DNA of 64,000 nt from Nitrospirota bacterium. GTDB lineage: Bacteria; Nitrospirota; Thermodesulfovibrionia; Thermodesulfovibrionales; Dissulfurispiraceae. The DNA is taken from NCBI GenBank assembly GCA_016936655.1, contig JAFGXL010000020.1, positions 1 to 64,000 on the forward strand. Direction: 5' to 3'. The notes under the pieces are model-generated. The model had not been told where the DNA came from. It was given only the letters and a program-made list of their open reading frames with translations, and did no database searches. How positions within the stretch are numbered: position 1 is the first letter of the stretch; every line of letters begins with the position of its first letter. Shown piece after piece: positions 30,179 through 39,301 of this stretch. A program made the position numbers and the translations under genes.

Positions 30179-32032
30179 ATGGCTAGACAACTTAAGAATC
30201 TCCTGAAAAAACTTTCGCATAAAGATCCTGCTGTCAGAAGAAGTGCTGCAGAGGAGCTTTCACAGGGCGATGAGAGGGCAGTTTATCCGCTCATAAAGGC
30301 TTTGGGAGACTCTAATGGCGGAGTACAGGATGCTGTCATGAGGTCTCTTATAGCAATCGGCGGCGAGACTACAGCCTACATGGTACTTCCTCTTCTTCGC
30401 GAAGGTACATTCATAAGAAATACTGCACTCATAATACTTACCTCAATTGGTGCACCTGTTGTGCCGCTTCTATATACTCTGCTCAGGGATAAGGATGATG
30501 ATGTCAGAAAATTCGGTCTGGATCTTATGGGCGAGATCAAAGCAGGCGTCAATGTAAAACAGGTAGTTCCAATGCTTAAAGACAGCAATGCAAATGTTCG
30601 CGCAGCAGCAGCCAAGACAATCGGACTGCTCAACTATACAGCAGCTGAACCACAGCTTATCCAGTCGCTTAATGATGAGGAGTGGGTCTGCTTCTCTGTG
30701 CTTGAGGCATTGGGTGAGATGAGGTCTGAGCAGGCAGTGCCAGCGATTGGCGCTCTTCTTAACCTTAACTCAAGTCCCGCAGTTCGTTACGTAGCAATTG
30801 AGGTGCTCGGCAAGATAGGTAATCCAAAGGCAAATCCTTTTCTGATGAGCTATCTCACTTATGCTGACAGCGATGAGACCAATGCTGTAATCAAGAGCAT
30901 GATTCAGATAGGCATTACTCCGGATATGGCAGATCTTACGGAGCATTTGATCGTCATGCTCGAAAAGAGTGATGACGAAGATCTCGAGATAGCCTTAAGA
31001 GGGATAGCTGATCTCAACTGCAGAACTGCTGTAAAACAGCTGATCAATCTTGCAGGTTCACTAGACACCTCAATACTAGGCAATGAAGAGAAGATCAGCC
31101 AGATCATGGATGTTATCAAAAAAATAGATTCTGAAGAAGAGCTTTTGAAGATTCTTGATGATCCTGAAATCAAATACAGGGGCAGGTCATTAACGATTAC
31201 GCTTTTGGGAGAGATTAAGAGCAGCAGGGCTGTGCCGGGTATACTCAAAAATTTAAAGGATACAAGCAGGGACATGCGCAGGGCTTCAGCAAAGGCGCTC
31301 GGCGACATAGGAGCCAAGGAGAGCATAGGAAGTCTTCTCGATGCTTCACAGAGCGATCCTGATGCGCATGTCAGAAAGGCTGCAATACAGGCTCTCGGCA
31401 ATATCGGGACAGCTGATGCATTTGAACCTCTAATAAGTCTTATAGAGGTGGAACAATATTTTGATGTAAAGGAAGAGATAGTCAGGGCGCTTCTGAAGAT
31501 TGATGAAAAACTCTTCCTGGAGAACTTCCGCAACTATAATAATTCCATTAAAGAGATAACTGCAGGAATAATCATGGATATTGACATGCTGATAAGTCTT
31601 GCAGCAGATCCGGATGAACGTGTCAGGATAGCTGCTGTTAAAGGAATGGGCGCTGTCGGAGGCCAACAGGCTGCTTTGCAGCTTATTACTTATTTGTCTG
31701 ATACAGACCCTGAGATCAGAAAGACAGCTGTTTCTGGCCTTGGCAGCGCTGGCTACTGTCCTCAAGAGCTGGTGTCCTCTCTTGATGATGCAGATCAGTG
31801 GGTCAGGTTTTATGCTGTTAAATCTATTTCGCAGACATGTGAAGACAAAGACCAGCTGATCGGCATATTAAGCCGTATGCTTAATGATGATTTTGTTCCT
31901 GTTGTAATGTCTGTTATCGATGTTATACGCGATATCGGAGGCGCGGAGGCTTACGAAACGCTCAACCAGTTTGTTGATCATACGAATGATGATATAAAAC
32001 AAAAAATTAGAGAGGCTCTTGATACATTATGA
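30179..32032 (+). CDS. HEAT-repeat protein between fliA and cheR
   Basis: 617 residues made almost wholly of HEAT/PBS-lyase-like repeats of about 31 residues (DSNANVRAAAAKTIGLLNYTAAEPQLI; DPDAHVRKAAIQALGNIGTADAFEPLI; DTDPEIRKTAVSGLGSAGY). No signal peptide or membrane helix, so it is cytoplasmic. It overlaps cheR by 4 bases, so it is translationally coupled to the chemotaxis genes. A scaffold within the chemosensory array or for CheR is possible, but nothing in the sequence names a partner. Confidence 0.85.
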   Translation: MARQLKNLLKKLSHKDPAVRRSAAEELSQGDERAVYPLIKALGDSNGGVQDAVMRSLIAIGGETTAYMVLPLLREGTFIRNTALIILTSIGAPVVPLLYTLLRDKDDDVRKFGLDLMGEIKAGVNVKQVVPMLKDSNANVRAAAAKTIGLLNYTAAEPQLIQSLNDEEWVCFSVLEALGEMRSEQAVPAIGALLNLNSSPAVRYVAIEVLGKIGNPKANPFLMSYLTYADSDETNAVIKSMIQIGITPDMADLTEHLIVMLEKSDDEDLEIALRGIADLNCRTAVKQLINLAGSLDTSILGNEEKISQIMDVIKKIDSEEELLKILDDPEIKYRGRSLTITLLGEIKSSRAVPGILKNLKDTSRDMRRASAKALGDIGAKESIGSLLDASQSDPDAHVRKAAIQALGNIGTADAFEPLISLIEVEQYFDVKEEIVRALLKIDEKLFLENFRNYNNSIKEITAGIIMDIDMLISLAADPDERVRIAAVKGMGAVGGQQAALQLITYLSDTDPEIRKTAVSGLGSAGYCPQELVSSLDDADQWVRFYAVKSISQTCEDKDQLIGILSRMLNDDFVPVVMSVIDVIRDIGGAEAYETLNQFVDHTNDDIKQKIREALDTL

Positions 32033-32859
32033 TCCCTCCACTTACGGAAGAGGTTTTTAGACAGCTTAGGGATTTTATATACGAAAAGAGCGGAATTTTT
32101 ATTCCGGACAATAAGAAGTATTTTCTTGAGAACAGGCTTGGCAGACGTGTGCAGGAAAAGAATCTCAAGACATATGATGACTATCTTTATATTCTCAAAT
32201 ACGGCAACGACAAGCCGGAGCTGACCAAGCTTTTTGACATGGTCACAACAAATGAGACCTTTTTCTTTAGGGAGCCTCTCCAGTTTGAACTCCTTACAGG
32301 AGAACTGCTCAAAAGGGTACTGGATGAAAATTCCAAGTCATCCAGAAAGGATATAAAGGTATGGTCAGCAGCCAGTTCTACTGGTGAAGAGGCATATACG
32401 ATTGCTATGCTTCTAAATGAATCGCCTGGCATGAAAGGCTATACAACTGACATATATGCAACTGATATATGCGAATCTGTTCTGCTATCAGCAAAGAACG
32501 GCGTATATGGATCGTATGCAGTAAGAAATGTGCCTGAGCAGTATTTAAAGAAATACTTTACAAATACAGATCAGCAGTTTCACTTGTCTGCTCAGATTAA
32601 AAAGATGGTCAAATTTTCCAAGATCAATCTTTTTGATGAAAAGGAAGTTAAGACCATAAGGGGCATGGACATAGTATTTTGCAGAAATGTGCTCATTTAT
32701 TTTGATGACAGGGCAAAGCAGAAGGTTGTATCTCATTTATATGATGCACTGAGGCCCGGAGGCTATTTAGTAATAGGAATATCTGAAAGCCTTCATAGTA
32801 TTACTAGAGCTTTTAGGCCTGTAGTTATTAATAAAGTAATCATATATCAGAAAGTGTAG
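32029..32859 (+). CDS. cheR: Chemoreceptor methyltransferase CheR
   Basis: 276 residues. Methylates receptor glutamates using SAM. The N-terminal all-alpha domain is followed by the SAM-binding motif AASSTGEEAYTIAML near residue 112, then FCRNVLIYFDDRAKQKVV and the GGYLVIGISESL segment. The C-terminal receptor-tethering site was not sought. Confidence 0.96.
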   Translation: MIPPLTEEVFRQLRDFIYEKSGIFIPDNKKYFLENRLGRRVQEKNLKTYDDYLYILKYGNDKPELTKLFDMVTTNETFFFREPLQFELLTGELLKRVLDENSKSSRKDIKVWSAASSTGEEAYTIAMLLNESPGMKGYTTDIYATDICESVLLSAKNGVYGSYAVRNVPEQYLKKYFTNTDQQFHLSAQIKKMVKFSKINLFDEKEVKTIRGMDIVFCRNVLIYFDDRAKQKVVSHLYDALRPGGYLVIGISESLHSITRAFRPVVINKVIIYQKV

Positions 32860-32875: not shown

Positions 32876-33268
32876 ATGAAGATTCTTATCGTTGATGACG
32901 ACAAGACCACACGAAAACTGCTGACTCTCTATCTCAAGGCAAAGGGATACGAGGTTGTTGCTGCTGAAAATGGTCTGGAGGCCATGGAAAAGCTCGGCAC
33001 AGAAAATGTTAATCTTGTGGTCAGCGACATGAATATGCCATTTATGGACGGCATCGAACTCGTAAAAAATATGCGCAACGATGCTGTTCTTGCAGATATG
33101 CCTGTTATTATGCTTACTACTGAAGCAGATGAGGATGAGAAGAAGAGGGCATTTGATGCTGGTGTTAATGATTATCTTGTAAAACCTTCAAATGCTGAAC
33201 AGATAACTGAGAGTATAAAGAGGATAATTAAACAGTTTTTCAATAAAGGGGGTGAAGCTGGTGTTTGA
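32876..33268 (+). CDS. Single-domain response regulator
   Basis: 130 residues, receiver only. IVDDDK acidic pair, phospho-acceptor Asp in [13 protein letters not shown], Thr in MLTTEADE and Lys in DYLVKPS. It is less like E. coli CheY than the next gene, lacking the SDWNM and GY(V/I)VKPFTA features, so it may tune adaptation or act as a phosphate sink. It overlaps the next gene by 17 bases. Confidence 0.9.
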
Positions 33269-33665
33269 TCTAAAACTAAAGGTATTGGTAGTTGACGACT
33301 TCCCCACCATGAGGAGAATAGTCAAAAACCTTTTAAAGCAGCTCGGATTTGAGAATATAGATGAGGCTGAAGATGGTAACATGGCTTTAAATAAGATGAA
33401 GAGCGGAAACTACGGTCTGGTTGTATCTGACTGGAATATGTCCAATATGGAAGGCATCGAGCTTCTTAGGAGTGTAAGGGCTGATGATACGCTTAAAGAG
33501 ACTCCCTTTCTCATGGTGACTGCTGAGGCTGAAAAAGAAAAGGTTATAGAGGCGATAAAAGCTGGTGTCGATAACTATATAGTCAAGCCTTTTACAGCAG
33601 AAATTCTTAAAGAAAAACTTGAGAAGATTGCAGACAAGAGACCGTCACTAAAAGCCGGAGGATAG
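33252..33665 (+). CDS. cheY: Chemotaxis response regulator CheY
   Basis: 137 residues, receiver only, close to E. coli Che[29 protein letters not shown] around the phospho-acceptor Asp, MVTAEAEKE and [16 protein letters not shown]. It should carry phosphate from CheA to FliM. Start is GTG at 33252 or GTG at 33261; the latter is better spaced from aaaggggg. Confidence 0.95.
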
Positions 33666-33666
33666 A

Positions 33667-35496
33667 ATGGCTGATGAGATGGATGAGATAATAAACGAAT
33701 TTGTTACTGAGGCTGAAGAGACTCTTGAGCGAATAGACCCTTTATTTATTGAACTTGAGACAAAGGGCTATAACAAGGATCTTCTTAACGAGATATTCCG
33801 AGGGATGCATACACTCAAAGGCGCAGCAGGGTTTCTCGGATTTCAGCCTATTGTTGATGTAGCCCACCGTTCAGAGAGTATAATGAAAAAGGTTCGAGAC
33901 GGCGAGATACAGATGACAACGCCGCTTATGGACGTAATACTCAAGAGTGTTGACGCGCTAAGGCTTCTTATATCTCATATAAGAGTAAAAGATGGTGTAG
34001 AGGAAGATGTATCAGCTCTTTTGAAAGAGCAGGATTCTGCACTTGAAAATGCTACAACCGGGCAGGCTGCAGAAAAGGAAAAAATTGCAGAAGCAGCGCT
34101 AGCTGCTGAAGTGAAGGAAGATGCTTCAAAAGAAGCTGCTATTGAAAAGCCAGCGCCTGTAGAACCAAAGGTTGAAGCAGCTGAATCAGAAAAAACACAT
34201 GCTCCTGAACATGCTGCAGCCCAGCAGAAGCCGCATGTACAGACAATAACCCCGCCTGCTGATGATACTGCCCAACAGGCATCCAAAGAAAAAGATGTTG
34301 TAGCAAATCTTAGAGTGGATGTTTCGAGAATTGACAAGGTTATGGATCTTGCCGGTGAAATAGTTCTGGCAAGAAACAGGCTGCTGAATATTGCATCAAG
34401 GCTGGATGTTGTTCATTCCGGAGATCCTCTCGTAGAAAATCTAAGCGAGACTACCGCGTTTCTGGACAGGGTGACCTCAGATCTTCAGCTGGCTGTAATG
34501 AAGATGAGGATGCAGCCAATTCAGAAGGTTTTTGGCAAATTTCCCAGAATGGTCAGAGATCTTGCGCGCAACCTGGGCAAGGATATTGATCTGGAGATAT
34601 TTGGTGAGGACACTGAAGTAGACAAGAGTGTTATCGAAAATATCGGAGATCCTCTTGTGCATATCATAAGGAACTCCATAGATCATGGTCTTGAATTTTC
34701 TGATGAACGAGTTGCAAAAGGCAAGCCTCCAAAAGGCAGGATAGTAATAAGCGCTTTCCAGAAAGGCACACTTATAGTCATAGAAGTTGTTGATGATGGC
34801 AAAGGCATCGATCTTGAAGTTGTTAAGAGAAAGGCGATAAACAGAGGGCTCATTACTGAAGAAGAGTCTCTTAAGATGTCTGAAGATGCTATTGTCAATC
34901 TTATTTTCCTCCCGGGCTTTTCGACAAAAGAGGTCTCTACAGAGCTGAGCGGCAGGGGCGTTGGCATGGATGTTGTTAAGACCAATGTCGCCAAACTTAA
35001 CGGATATGTAGAGGTTATCACAAAAAAAGATGTTGGAAGCACATTCAGGATAAGTCTGCCTCTCACTCTGGCTATACTTCAGGCGATGATGATAAAAGTC
35101 GGCAAGGAAGTGTATGCTGTGCCTCAGTCAATGGTTGAAGAGACTATAAGGATTAAAAAGGAAGAGATAAAGGATATAGCTGGACAAAAGGTTCTTACAA
35201 TCCGTGACAGGGTTCTGCCCATGTATGACATGGCTACAGTGCTTGGTGTTAAAAATGTTGTTGATGAAGGCAGGGATTTTACCTATATACTCGTGATGGT
35301 TGTAGGAGACAGGCGCTTCTGTATTTCTGTTGATGAGCTTATAGGGCAGGAAGAGGTGGTTATAAAGACTATCAACGGTATAGATTCTGATGAATGCGGT
35401 ATCCTAGGAGCCACCATAACCGGTGACGGCACGGTTGTGCTTATAATTGACCTTGCTGTGATGGCTCGCGGACTTTTTGCTGGTTCATCAAAATAA
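33667..35496 (+). CDS. cheA: Chemotaxis histidine kinase CheA
   Basis: 609 residues. P1 Hpt domain with His48 in MHTLKGAAGFLG. A long Ala/Glu/Lys-rich linker (about 125-210) stands where P2 would be, so CheY docking may be direct. P3 dimerisation follows (LRVDVSRIDKVMDLAGEIVLARN). P4 ATPase has HIIRNSIDHGLE and GRGVGMDVVKTNV. The C-terminal P5 CheW-like domain completes it. The start is 1 base after the cheY stop. Confidence 0.96.
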   Translation: MADEMDEIINEFVTEAEETLERIDPLFIELETKGYNKDLLNEIFRGMHTLKGAAGFLGFQPIVDVAHRSESIMKKVRDGEIQMTTPLMDVILKSVDALRLLISHIRVKDGVEEDVSALLKEQDSALENATTGQAAEKEKIAEAALAAEVKEDASKEAAIEKPAPVEPKVEAAESEKTHAPEHAAAQQKPHVQTITPPADDTAQQASKEKDVVANLRVDVSRIDKVMDLAGEIVLARNRLLNIASRLDVVHSGDPLVENLSETTAFLDRVTSDLQLAVMKMRMQPIQKVFGKFPRMVRDLARNLGKDIDLEIFGEDTEVDKSVIENIGDPLVHIIRNSIDHGLEFSDERVAKGKPPKGRIVISAFQKGTLIVIEVVDDGKGIDLEVVKRKAINRGLITEEESLKMSEDAIVNLIFLPGFSTKEVSTELSGRGVGMDVVKTNVAKLNGYVEVITKKDVGSTFRISLPLTLAILQAMMIKVGKEVYAVPQSMVEETIRIKKEEIKDIAGQKVLTIRDRVLPMYDMATVLGVKNVVDEGRDFTYILVMVVGDRRFCISVDELIGQEEVVIKTINGIDSDECGILGATITGDGTVVLIIDLAVMARGLFAGSSK

Positions 35497-35508: not shown

Positions 35509-36696
35509 ATGCAATACATCGGCTTCATGATGAACTCAAACGAGTATTCAATTCCTATATTAAAGGTGCAGGAGATTGTTAATGTGCCTTCTGTCACCAA
35601 ACTGCCTCAGGCTCCGCACTACATAGAGGGTATAACAAATCTCAGAGGCAGGATTATACCAGTTGTGAATCTGAAAAAACTGGTTGGCCTGCCGGGAGAG
35701 GGCGGTGACAAGGTTATAGTCATTTCGAGCGGAAAGATAACCTTTGGCATATTGATAGACAGCATAACAGGAGTTGTTTCAATTGATGATTCTTTGATTG
35801 AACCGGCTGAAAACTTTATGCAGACAAATATCGATCAGATTGAAGGCGTAGCAAGAGTTGACAATAAGCTCGTGGTGCTTCTGGATACAAAGAAACTCAT
35901 ACCTTTGGAGGATATGAGCATGTTTGAAGACCAGGTTTTTGACTACAAAGAGACTGCTGATGGTCAAAAAGTTGAAGTCATAAAAAAACTTGAGGGTGTA
36001 GGCGGTGAAGTTCTGGTAAAGGAGATGGTCGACGCGAAAGAGTTCTTCCATAAAAAGGGATTATCAACAGCTGATCCAAAGTACCAGATCGTAGAAAAGC
36101 TTATGGAGTTTATGGATGCTGTAAATACTCAGGATCTTGAAAAGGCTGATTCAGCCATCCAAGAGATTATGAAATCAGGCCAGTCGGATCTTTTTAAAGA
36201 GGTAGGCAGGATAACCAGAAAATTGCATGATTCAATAAGAAGCTTTAAAGAAGCTCTTGATCCAAAACTTAAAGATATGGCTGTATCAGATATGCCTAAT
36301 GCTGTTGACAAGCTCCAGTTTGTCATCACAAAAACTGAGGAGGCCGCAAACAAAACCATGGAGATAGTTGAGACCCATATATTATCCATGGACGAGCTTG
36401 CAGGTCATATAAGAAATCTTCAGGGTTCTGAAGAGTCCGTAGCTTATCTTAAGGATTTTAAAAATAAGTTTGAAGACAATCTTACTGAGATACTCACAAC
36501 TCAGTCATTTCAGGATATAACCGGTCAGACGATAAAGAAGGTGATAAAGCTAGTTGGCGACATAGAGGAAGAGCTTGTAAAAATGATAACAACTTTCGGC
36601 TTTAAGATGGACAGCGGCAGCAAGAGCGCTGCAGATGAAGCAGAAAAGGTGTCGCAGTCTGATGTTGATGACCTCTTAAAGGAGCTGGGGTTCTGA
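35509..36696 (+). CDS. CheW-CheZ fusion: coupling protein plus CheY-P phosphatase
   Basis: 395 residues in one unbroken frame. Residues about 1-135 are a CheW/SH3-like coupling domain (LKVQEIVNVPSVTKLPQAP; YIEGITNLRGRIIPVVNL). Residues about 185-395 match CheZ throughout: VGRITRKLHDSIRSF; the four-helix MPNAVDKLQFVITKTEEAA; the active-site FQDITGQTIKK (334-340 plus), where Asp336 and Gln340 correspond to E. coli Asp143 and Gln147; and the CheY-binding tail SDVDDLLKELGF, nearly identical to E. coli VDDLLDSLGF. The product should place the phosphatase in the receptor-kinase array. No separate cheW or cheZ occurs in the window. Confidence 0.93.
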   Translation: MQYIGFMMNSNEYSIPILKVQEIVNVPSVTKLPQAPHYIEGITNLRGRIIPVVNLKKLVGLPGEGGDKVIVISSGKITFGILIDSITGVVSIDDSLIEPAENFMQTNIDQIEGVARVDNKLVVLLDTKKLIPLEDMSMFEDQVFDYKETADGQKVEVIKKLEGVGGEVLVKEMVDAKEFFHKKGLSTADPKYQIVEKLMEFMDAVNTQDLEKADSAIQEIMKSGQSDLFKEVGRITRKLHDSIRSFKEALDPKLKDMAVSDMPNAVDKLQFVITKTEEAANKTMEIVETHILSMDELAGHIRNLQGSEESVAYLKDFKNKFEDNLTEILTTQSFQDITGQTIKKVIKLVGDIEEELVKMITTFGFKMDSGSKSAADEAEKVSQSDVDDLLKELGF

Positions 36697-36700
36697 TTAC

Positions 36701-37756
36701 ATGGTAAAAGTACTTATTGTAGATGACTCAGCATTCATGCGAAACGCTATCTCATCCATGCTGTCTTCCGACCATGAGATAAACATAGTCGGCACAGCAA
36801 AAGATGGAATTGAAGCTATAGAGAAGGTCGCTCTCCTTAAGCCGGATATTGTGACGCTGGACATTGAGATGCCGAGGATGGACGGTTTGACGGCGCTCAA
36901 ACATATCATGGAAAAGACACCTGTTCCTGTTATTATGCTCAGCTCTTTGACAGTTGAAGGGGCAAAAGAGACCCTTGATGCATTTGATCTTGGAGCAGTA
37001 GATTTTATACCCAAAAATCTTTCAGACCTTTCTGTAAACATAGTAAAGATAAAAGAGTCACTTGTCGAGAAAGTAAAACATCTTGCAAAACGCGGAGTAG
37101 TTAGGAGAAGGCGCTCAGCATCTGAAACACAAGTTGAGCATGCTCCAAGACCGGCTCTGCAGGTCAGATCAACTGGAGAACGCAAGGTTACCTTGATATC
37201 GATAGGTACATCTACTGGCGGGCCCAAGGCGCTTCAGGAGATAATTCCGCAGCTGCCTAAAGATTTTCCTATACCGATTGTTATTGCACAGCATATGCCA
37301 GCAAATTTTACAGGCCCATTTGCTGAAAGGCTTAATCAGCTCAGCGGTATAACAGTCAAGGAGGCAGAAGAAGGTGAGCCGCTTAAATCAGGAGTTGCTC
37401 TGATTGCGCCGGGCTGGGGTCATATGAGGGTAAACCGAGTACGCGGCATTGAAACTATTGTAAGTATAACTCCTGGAAGTAAAGAGGAGTATATATACAG
37501 GCCGTCTGTTGATGCATTAATGCTTTCTGTGTCTGAATTTTATCCGGGCAGAGCATTAGGAGTAATACTTACTGGAATGGGAGCTGACGGATCCAAAGGA
37601 ATAGCAGCCATGAAGGCAACAGGATCTAGAATCTTCGCACAAAATGAAGAGTCTTGTGTTGTTTACGGCATGCCAAAAGCTGTTGTAGATGCTGGTTTGG
37701 CTGACAAAATTCTGGATCTTGAAGATATAGCTGGCGAAATAGTCAATTCAGTATAG
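36701..37756 (+). CDS. cheB: Chemotaxis protein-glutamate methylesterase CheB
   Basis: 351 residues. N-terminal receiver with phospho-acceptor Asp in VTLDIEMPRMDG, a basic linker (about 125-155), then the CheB catalytic domain with Ser in SIGTSTGGPKAL, His in IAQHMPANFT and Asp in LTGMGADGSKG. It removes receptor methyl groups and deamidates glutamines. Four bases after the CheW-CheZ gene. Confidence 0.96.
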   Translation: MVKVLIVDDSAFMRNAISSMLSSDHEINIVGTAKDGIEAIEKVALLKPDIVTLDIEMPRMDGLTALKHIMEKTPVPVIMLSSLTVEGAKETLDAFDLGAVDFIPKNLSDLSVNIVKIKESLVEKVKHLAKRGVVRRRRSASETQVEHAPRPALQVRSTGERKVTLISIGTSTGGPKALQEIIPQLPKDFPIPIVIAQHMPANFTGPFAERLNQLSGITVKEAEEGEPLKSGVALIAPGWGHMRVNRVRGIETIVSITPGSKEEYIYRPSVDALMLSVSEFYPGRALGVILTGMGADGSKGIAAMKATGSRIFAQNEESCVVYGMPKAVVDAGLADKILDLEDIAGEIVNSV

Positions 37757-37783: not shown

Positions 37784-39301
37784 ATGAAAATAGGAAAACA
37801 GCTTCAGATTTTTATTGTGCTGCTTTTGGTCTTCCCACTTATTAATGTGCTGTTTGTTTTTTGGCAGCTGGATATGAAAGATGACGGCAGGGTTGTCAAC
37901 TATTCAGGCATTGTCCGCGGAGCTACTCAGAGGCTGGTTAAGCTAGAGATTTCTGGTGTGCAGCAGGATAAGCTCAGTGCAAAACTAGACAGCATTATTG
38001 AAGGGCTTATTAACGGAAGTAAAGAGCTTGGCCTTCCAACAGCAAAAGATGCTGCGTATATAGCCAGCATGAAGGATGTTAAGGCTTCATGGGAAAAGCT
38101 TAAAAAGACTGTTATAGAAGCAAGGCAGAAACCTGAAATAAAACCTGAGCTGCTTAAGGAGAGCGAGGCATACTTCGAGCTGACAAACAAAGCTGTATCA
38201 GCTGCAGAGGGATATTCAGAAAAGAAGGCCGGCAAGCTTGGGTACATGGCAGTTATTCTTTTCTTGGTCAACCTGGTTGTACTCTGCCTAGTATGGTTAA
38301 AGACAAGAACAAATATATCCAGACCTCTTGCTGACATAGAATCAAAAGTCTCGAAGATTTCTTCTGGAGATCTGAGGGTCAACATAGATTACGCAAAAAA
38401 TGACGAGATAGGATCTATGGCTGGCAGCGTAAGGCGAATGGTCGCATCATTTCAGTCTCTTATAAAGGCGATGTTTACTTCATCAGAGAGTGTTGTTAGC
38501 GCTGTATCTCTCCTGAGTTCAAAAGGCTCAGAGACAGCAGATAAAGCAAAGTATCAGGCTATGCAGGCATCAAACATAGCAACAGCTGCTGAGGAGATGA
38601 ACCAGACAATAGGTGATATAGCCAGAAATGCTTCTGTTGCATCTGATACATCAAGTCAGGCTATGGAGACCGCAAAGAAGGGGCAGCAGATAGCAGACGG
38701 AGCTGTTGACACAGTAAATAGGGTTTATACATCAACAATTGAGCTTGCCACAATGGTTGAAAAGCTGAATAACAGAGTAGGAGAGATTGGAGAGATTATA
38801 ACTACAATTAATGATATTGCTGATCAGACAAACCTGCTCGCTCTCAACGCAGCCATTGAGGCAGCAAGGGCAGGAGAACAGGGCAGAGGCTTCGCTGTTG
38901 TTGCTGATGAGGTTAGAAAGCTTGCTGAACGCACAATAAAGGCTACAGCAGAGATATCTGACAAGATAGGATCTGTGCAGGCAGAGTCTGAACAGACAGC
39001 GAAGTCAATGTCAGATGCATCAGGTGAGGTTACAAAAGCTACAGAGTTTATAAAAGAGGTTGGGGTTTCTCTGAACCATATTGTGACTGAGGTTCAGAAG
39101 GTGAGAGACCAGATAACACAGATTGCAACAGCAGTGGAACAGCAGTCAGCCACATCTTCTGAAGTTGCCGATAACACTGAGCAGACACTTGCTACAGCAA
39201 AGCAGATTGAAACTCTTTCTGTAGAGGTTGTTAAAGAGGTTGAGGCCTTACGCGATGTAGCAGAAAAGCTTACAAATACAGCAAAAGATTTCAAGGTATA
39301 A
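37784..39301 (+). CDS. Methyl-accepting chemotaxis protein with NarX/PilJ-type P-box
   Basis: 505 residues. Membrane helices at about 8-28 and 152-172 flank a periplasmic domain of about 120 residues. That domain begins with [21 protein letters not shown] (38-58, in two parts), like the P-box of NarX/PilJ-type sensors. HAMP (about 173-226) and the signalling domain follow, with hairpin tip [21 protein letters not shown]. The P-box of NarX binds nitrate or nitrite, but ligand specificity here is only a guess. It is the sole receptor in the window. Confidence 0.93.

What the first reader, a model, noticed from the sequence alone, without database searches (positions are those of the whole stretch)
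35509..36696. CheW and CheZ fused in one polypeptide
One uninterrupted 395-codon frame holds a CheW coupling domain and a complete CheZ, including catalytic-equivalent Asp336 and Gln340 and the CheY-binding tail VDDLLKELGF. E. coli attaches CheZ to the array through CheA-short; here fusion to CheW would achieve the same and fix the stoichiometry. I am not aware of this being a standard arrangement.
Basis: partly seen in the sequence, partly recalled or inferred. Interest (0 to 1): 0.75.

Follow-up and report, generated by a model that had tools for sequence, protein, structure and literature searches.

The report
Array adaptor fused to chemotaxis phosphatase
In a group of Nitrospirota bacteria, the protein that plugs into the chemoreceptor array (CheW) and the enzyme that switches the swimming signal off (CheZ) are made as one protein, which probably anchors the off-switch at the array without the helper protein E. 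coli uses.

Summary
One uninterrupted 395-codon frame (35509-36696, +) encodes a CheW domain (Pfam 112 bits) followed by CheZ (123 bits). It lies inside a flagellar-chemotaxis operon between cheA and cheB.

It is not an artefact. About 64 of 296 sampled genomes of the phylum carry the fusion, nearly all in one class (Thermodesulfovibrionia, Nitrospirota) and in conserved gene order. A divergent version occurs in a second class. In a third group CheZ follows a decayed CheW. Nitrospira-like genomes have CheZ alone.

In 49 aligned fusions the CheW Glu-Arg pair (E. coli E38/R62) and the CheZ catalytic Asp are invariant. The catalytic Gln is kept in 47, and the CheY-binding tail is conserved.

CheZ is not quite complete: the apical hairpin that E. 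coli uses to bind CheA-short is shortened. And stoichiometry is not fixed: a conserved ordinary CheW is also present, next to the fusion in many relatives and unlinked in this genome.

Most likely it is a second coupling protein, working like CheV or spirochaete CheW-CheR-like, that tethers active CheY-P phosphatase to the array. No description of CheW-CheZ turned up in the open literature I could search. I rate it a new variant of a known kind.

The parts
35509..36696 (+). cheW-cheZ fusion gene, 395 aa
35497..35503 (+). Shine-Dalgarno-like AGAGGAG upstream of the fusion start
35512..35901 (+). CheW domain (residues 2-131); E22 and R46 equal E. coli CheW E38 and R62
35902..36186 (+). Linker (residues 132-226), faster-evolving; only scattered positions are conserved in it
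36187..36693 (+). CheZ domain (residues 227-395), apical hairpin shortened
36514..36528 (+). DITGQ, catalytic D336 and Q340 (E. coli D143, Q147)
36664..36693 (+). C-terminal CheY-binding peptide VDDLLKELGF (386-395)
32029..32859 (+). CheR
32876..33268 (+). single-domain receiver protein (RR1), syntenic in relatives
33252..33665 (+). CheY, presumed substrate of the CheZ part (179 bits to the E. coli CheY model, cut-off 189)
33667..35496 (+). CheA of the flagellar system (Hpt, dimerisation, ATPase, CheW-like); no P2 match
36701..37756 (+). CheB, starts 4 bases after the fusion's stop
37784..39301 (+). methyl-accepting chemotaxis protein

Best explanation
The gene encodes an auxiliary coupling protein. 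Its CheW domain takes CheW positions in the receptor-CheA array of the flagellar system. Its CheZ part forms the usual dimeric four-helix phosphatase, held next to the kinase by a linker of about 90 residues. CheY-P made by CheA is caught by the C-terminal peptide and hydrolysed by the D336/Q340 site at the array. The covalent tether replaces the CheA-short docking that E. coli uses. A separate ordinary CheW fills the remaining positions, so the amount of phosphatase at the array depends on the CheWZ:CheW ratio. Shown: the fusion, its conservation, intact active-site and coupling residues, the shortened docking tip, operon context, and the co-occurring ordinary CheW. Inferred: array incorporation, phosphatase activity, dimerisation and the tether's effect.
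For: Both domains are significant in Pfam in the window protein and in all 15 diverse members tested. In 49 fusions E38/R62 (E. coli CheW numbering) is 49/49, CheZ D143 is 49/49, Q147 is 47/49 and the final Phe is 48/49; the W97 and F98 alignment columns are gapped in 49/49. It is the only CheZ in the genome; the one other weak hit overlaps an MCP-signal match. The order FlhF-FlhG-FliA-HEAT-CheR-RR-CheY-CheA-CheWZ-CheB is conserved in many relatives. An ordinary CheW of one supported clade (98/95) is found alongside it. No internal start with a Shine-Dalgarno site is conserved that would release free CheZ; the commonest position occurs in 11 of 49. No CheA-short-like internal start with a good Shine-Dalgarno site was seen in cheA. 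Precedent: E. coli localises CheZ at the array and this alters sensitivity and motor timing (PMC7696710; PMC2673030). Spirochaete CheW-CheR-like is an array component used together with a classical CheW (PMC7666581).
Against: No structure supports it: the AlphaFold2 run on 5 sequences failed (mean pLDDT 38.7). Localisation and enzyme activity are untested. The linker might be cleaved, giving free CheZ. A shortened hairpin is not unique to fusions: CheZ of alpha- and delta-proteobacteria also lacks the CheA-short site (PMC7750401). In one group of genomes (f28) the CheW half has decayed while CheZ remains, so tethering through CheW is not needed in all lineages.
Confidence: 0.75

Rival explanations
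1. The fusion is the structural CheW of the array, so every CheW position of that array carries a CheZ.
For: No other cheW lies in this operon in the window; the nearest CheW genes are on other contigs.
Against: An orthologous ordinary CheW is conserved and lies in the same cluster in many relatives. This genome keeps it at C42:216705. CheV is present too.
Confidence: 0.1
2. The polypeptide is processed, or translated from an internal start, so that CheW and CheZ act as separate proteins.
For: The linker is fast-evolving (dN 0.18 against 0.03-0.05 in the domains). Some members have chance internal start-plus-SD sites.
Against: No internal start is conserved in position (best 11/49). The linker occurs in nearly all members of the main class at similar length. 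The fused frame is kept over large divergence (down to 26% identity).
Confidence: 0.08
3. The CheZ part is not mainly an enzyme but a CheY-P sink or a structural brace of the array, like the non-catalytic CheR-like half of spirochaete CheW-CheR-like.
For: CheW-CheR-like is a structural precedent. Second copies in G158 and G290 have Q147 replaced by Arg while the CheW residues are kept.
Against: All other fusions examined keep D and Q, 47/47. No other CheZ exists in the genome to do the job.
Confidence: 0.07

Closest known systems
E. coli CheZ localised by CheA-short
   Same: Same phosphatase family, catalytic Asp/Gln, CheY-binding tail, and presumed placement at the array.
   Different: There docking is non-covalent through the apical hairpin and CheA-short. 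Here CheZ is covalently joined to CheW, the hairpin is shortened and no CheA-short-like start was seen.
CheW-CheR-like of spirochaetes (F2 systems; PMC7666581)
   Same: A CheW domain fused at its C-terminus to another chemotaxis enzyme domain; found with a classical CheW that lies outside the che cluster.
   Different: The fused domain is a methyltransferase-like fold judged non-catalytic there. Here it is CheZ with its catalytic residues kept.
CheV (CheW + receiver domain)
   Same: An auxiliary CheW-type adaptor carrying a second domain that acts on the phosphoryl flow; proposed as an extra adaptor and phosphate sink (PMC4742279).
   Different: It carries a receiver domain, not a phosphatase. 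This genome also has a separate CheV-like protein.
Stand-alone CheZ of Nitrospira-like genomes
   Same: Same phylum; the gene lies between cheY and cheA in the cluster.
   Different: No CheW domain (frames of roughly 200-300 aa).

Membership tests
CheW coupling proteins (PF01584) | Match over the curated cut-off across the whole domain | tested here: met
   112.2 bits, cut-off 23.5, residues 2-131
CheW coupling proteins (PF01584) | Conserved Glu38-Arg62 salt-bridge pair and NLRG core | tested here: met
   E22/R46, invariant in 49/49 fusions; NLRG present
CheW coupling proteins (PF01584) | Binds CheA P5 and receptors in arrays | not testable with these tools
   Needs biochemistry or imaging
CheZ phosphatase (PF04344) | Match over the curated cut-off | tested here: met
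   123 bits, cut-off 30.7, two collinear stretches
CheZ phosphatase (PF04344) | Catalytic DxxxQ (D143, Q147) | tested here: met
   D336/Q340; D 49/49, Q 47/49 in the family
CheZ phosphatase (PF04344) | C-terminal CheY-binding peptide | tested here: met
   VDDLLKELGF against E. coli QVDDLLDSLGF
CheZ phosphatase (PF04344) | CheY-P dephosphorylation activity | not testable with these tools
   No assay
E. coli-type CheZ docked to CheA-short | Apical hairpin with W97/F98 | tested here: not met
   Columns gapped in 49/49; hairpin 53 against 74 residues in this protein
E. coli-type CheZ docked to CheA-short | Internal CheA-short start | tested here: inconclusive
   In-frame ATG codons exist near the end of P1, with at most 3-base SD matches
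CheV | CheW domain followed by a receiver domain | tested here: not met
   No Response_reg match in P0001
CheW-CheR-like (spirochaete F2) | CheR-like C-terminal domain | tested here: not met
   No CheR match in P0001

The most novel reading that the evidence does not exclude
Because CheZ dimerises through its helix bundle, CheW-CheZ dimers physically cross-link neighbouring CheW positions in the array rings. The phosphatase is then also an architectural element, so array geometry and signal termination are set by one protein. This fusion would have arisen more than once in the phylum.
Probability: 0.25. Interest if true: 0.65.

Novelty: new variant of a known kind. Interest (0 to 1): 0.5.

Why it matters
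Where the CheY-P phosphatase sits changes sensitivity and timing in E. coli, where the tether is a special short form of CheA. A natural, widely conserved covalent tether to CheW shows another solution to the same problem. It gives a ready-made single protein for testing what phosphatase localisation does. It also adds to a pattern (CheV, CheW-CheR-like, CheW-CheZ) in which CheW serves as a plug-in carrying different enzymes into arrays. Annotation that labels such proteins simply 'CheW' would miss the phosphatase.

Tried and rejected
- AlphaFold2 on the permitted 5-sequence alignment gave pLDDT 38.7 and was discarded; no fold search was run on it.
- Sequencing artefact: rejected, since dozens of independent genomes carry the intact frame.
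- Internal translation start releasing CheZ: not conserved.
- A second CheZ in the genome: the weak hit at C42:85971 overlaps an MCP-signal match.
- Fixed stoichiometry: rejected because of the conserved separate CheW.
- Fusions on plasmids: 276 plasmid records matched, none over 80% of the query in one place.
- Literature: ten searches gave no CheW-CheZ protein. The CheW-architecture survey by Vass et al. 2022 (cited in PMC12632262) is not held under its PMC id (an earlier try with a guessed DOI also failed), so earlier mention there cannot be excluded.

Full report
OBSERVATION. The frame 35509-36696 (+) translates to 395 residues without a stop and starts ATG after AGAGGAG. Pfam finds CheW (2-131, 112.2 bits, cut-off 23.5) and CheZ (123 bits, cut-off 30.7, two collinear stretches from 227 to the end). 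The PDB sequence search finds CheW 2qdl and 2ho9 within residues 2-141 and CheZ 1kmi from 224.

CONTEXT. The gene lies in a flagellar-chemotaxis operon: FlhF, a MinD/FlhG-like ATPase, FliA, a HEAT-repeat protein, CheR, a receiver protein, CheY, CheA, CheW-CheZ, CheB (4 bases after the fusion's stop), an MCP, then FlgF/G, FlgA, FlgH and FlgI. The genome is about 2.0 Mb in 42 contigs. Its relatives in a named collection are Nitrospirota, including a Thermodesulfovibrionales MAG; the class name used here is inferred from those titles. It has three CheA genes, seven MCP-signal matches, eight CheW-domain matches and one CheZ. The window's CheA has Hpt, dimerisation, ATPase and CheW-like domains but no P2 match; residues about 130-205 are low-complexity.

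CONSERVATION. Of 296 genomes drawn from the phylum, I count about 64 with the fusion (my tally of the rows, plus G001 and G011). Sixty are in the window's class. The gene order is well conserved there. In 49 fusions the CheW E38/R62 pair is invariant, CheZ D143 is invariant, Q147 is kept in 47 and the last Phe in 48. The two Q-to-R cases are second copies in G158 and G290, where no other chemotaxis genes except receiver-domain matches were recognised nearby. Fifteen diverse members all match both Pfam families. dN/dS against the nearest relative is 0.017 (CheW) and 0.023 (CheZ), approximate because synonymous sites are nearly saturated. The linker changes faster (dN 0.18 against 0.03-0.05).

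ANATOMY. The CheZ part lacks profile positions 80-106. The segment from E. coli residue 70 to D143 is 74 residues in E. coli, 53 in this protein and in 35 of 49 fusions, and 51-70 in the others. The columns of E. coli W97/F98 are gapped in all. In E. coli those aromatics bind CheA-short (PMC7750401). [quoted passage not shown]

EVOLUTION. In the CheZ tree the class-level fusions group apart from a second set of fusions (family f20), which nests with a stand-alone CheZ of the same family (100/99). Strongly supported branches force at least two changes of the fused state in both the CheZ and the CheW tree. The cause is either two fusions or one fusion with later splits; E. coli CheZ is a long branch, so the root is unsure. 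In family f28, CheZ is preceded by a region with weak CheW similarity (22.6 and 21.0 bits, cut-off 23.5; none in a third member), read here as a decayed CheW.

THE SECOND CheW. The CheW tree contains a supported clade (98/95) of ordinary CheW proteins. It includes this genome's unlinked CheW (C42:216705, between a glnE-like gene and a glutamine synthetase gene), and CheW genes lying next to or a few genes from cheWZ in G032, G062, G083, G140, G152, G162, G207 and G236. Further loci carry CheW at 62-84% identity, in the cluster or elsewhere. The array therefore probably contains both proteins, as in spirochaete F2 arrays, where CheW-CheR-like works with a classical CheW that lies outside the cluster (PMC7666581).

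MECHANISM (inferred). The CheW half docks with CheA P5 and receptors. The CheZ half dimerises and removes CheY-P at its source. In E. coli, array-localised CheZ raises sensitivity and makes the off-response distance-dependent (PMC7696710; PMC2673030). With no P2 on CheA, the CheZ tail could also be the main CheY-P docking site at the array; this is speculation.

LIMITS. No structural model, no experiment, no survey outside Nitrospirota, and a key survey paper unavailable. Classification: new variant of a known kind, a CheW-type auxiliary adaptor with a fused CheZ phosphatase.

Noticed in passing
30179-32032: A 617-aa HEAT-repeat protein between fliA and cheR is kept in the same place in many relatives; its role in the chemotaxis cluster is unknown.
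   Followed up: partly
33667-35496: The flagellar CheA has no recognisable P2 (CheY-docking) domain; a low-complexity Ala/Glu-rich stretch lies in its place.
   Followed up: partly
32876-33665: Two single-domain receivers overlap by 17 bases, an RR1 protein followed by CheY; both are conserved in order across the class.
   Followed up: no
L039 6903-8081 (-), L040 6627-7817 (+): Second CheW-CheZ copies in G158 and G290 have the catalytic Gln replaced by Arg, and no other chemotaxis genes except receiver-domain matches were recognised near them; possibly non-catalytic adaptors.
   Followed up: partly
L069 3122-4165 (-), L070 3383-4495 (-), L071, L072: In family f28, CheZ is preceded by a region that looks like a decayed CheW domain, below the Pfam cut-off.
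   Followed up: partly
L054 (G058:C59): A genome of another class carries a 59-60% identical fusion with much of the cluster on a 10.8-kb contig; horizontal transfer or bin contamination.
   Followed up: no
L110 (G180:C94): A CheZ unlike the others, without CheW and with a long extra C-terminal tail, in a genome of the same order; possibly foreign or contamination.
   Followed up: no
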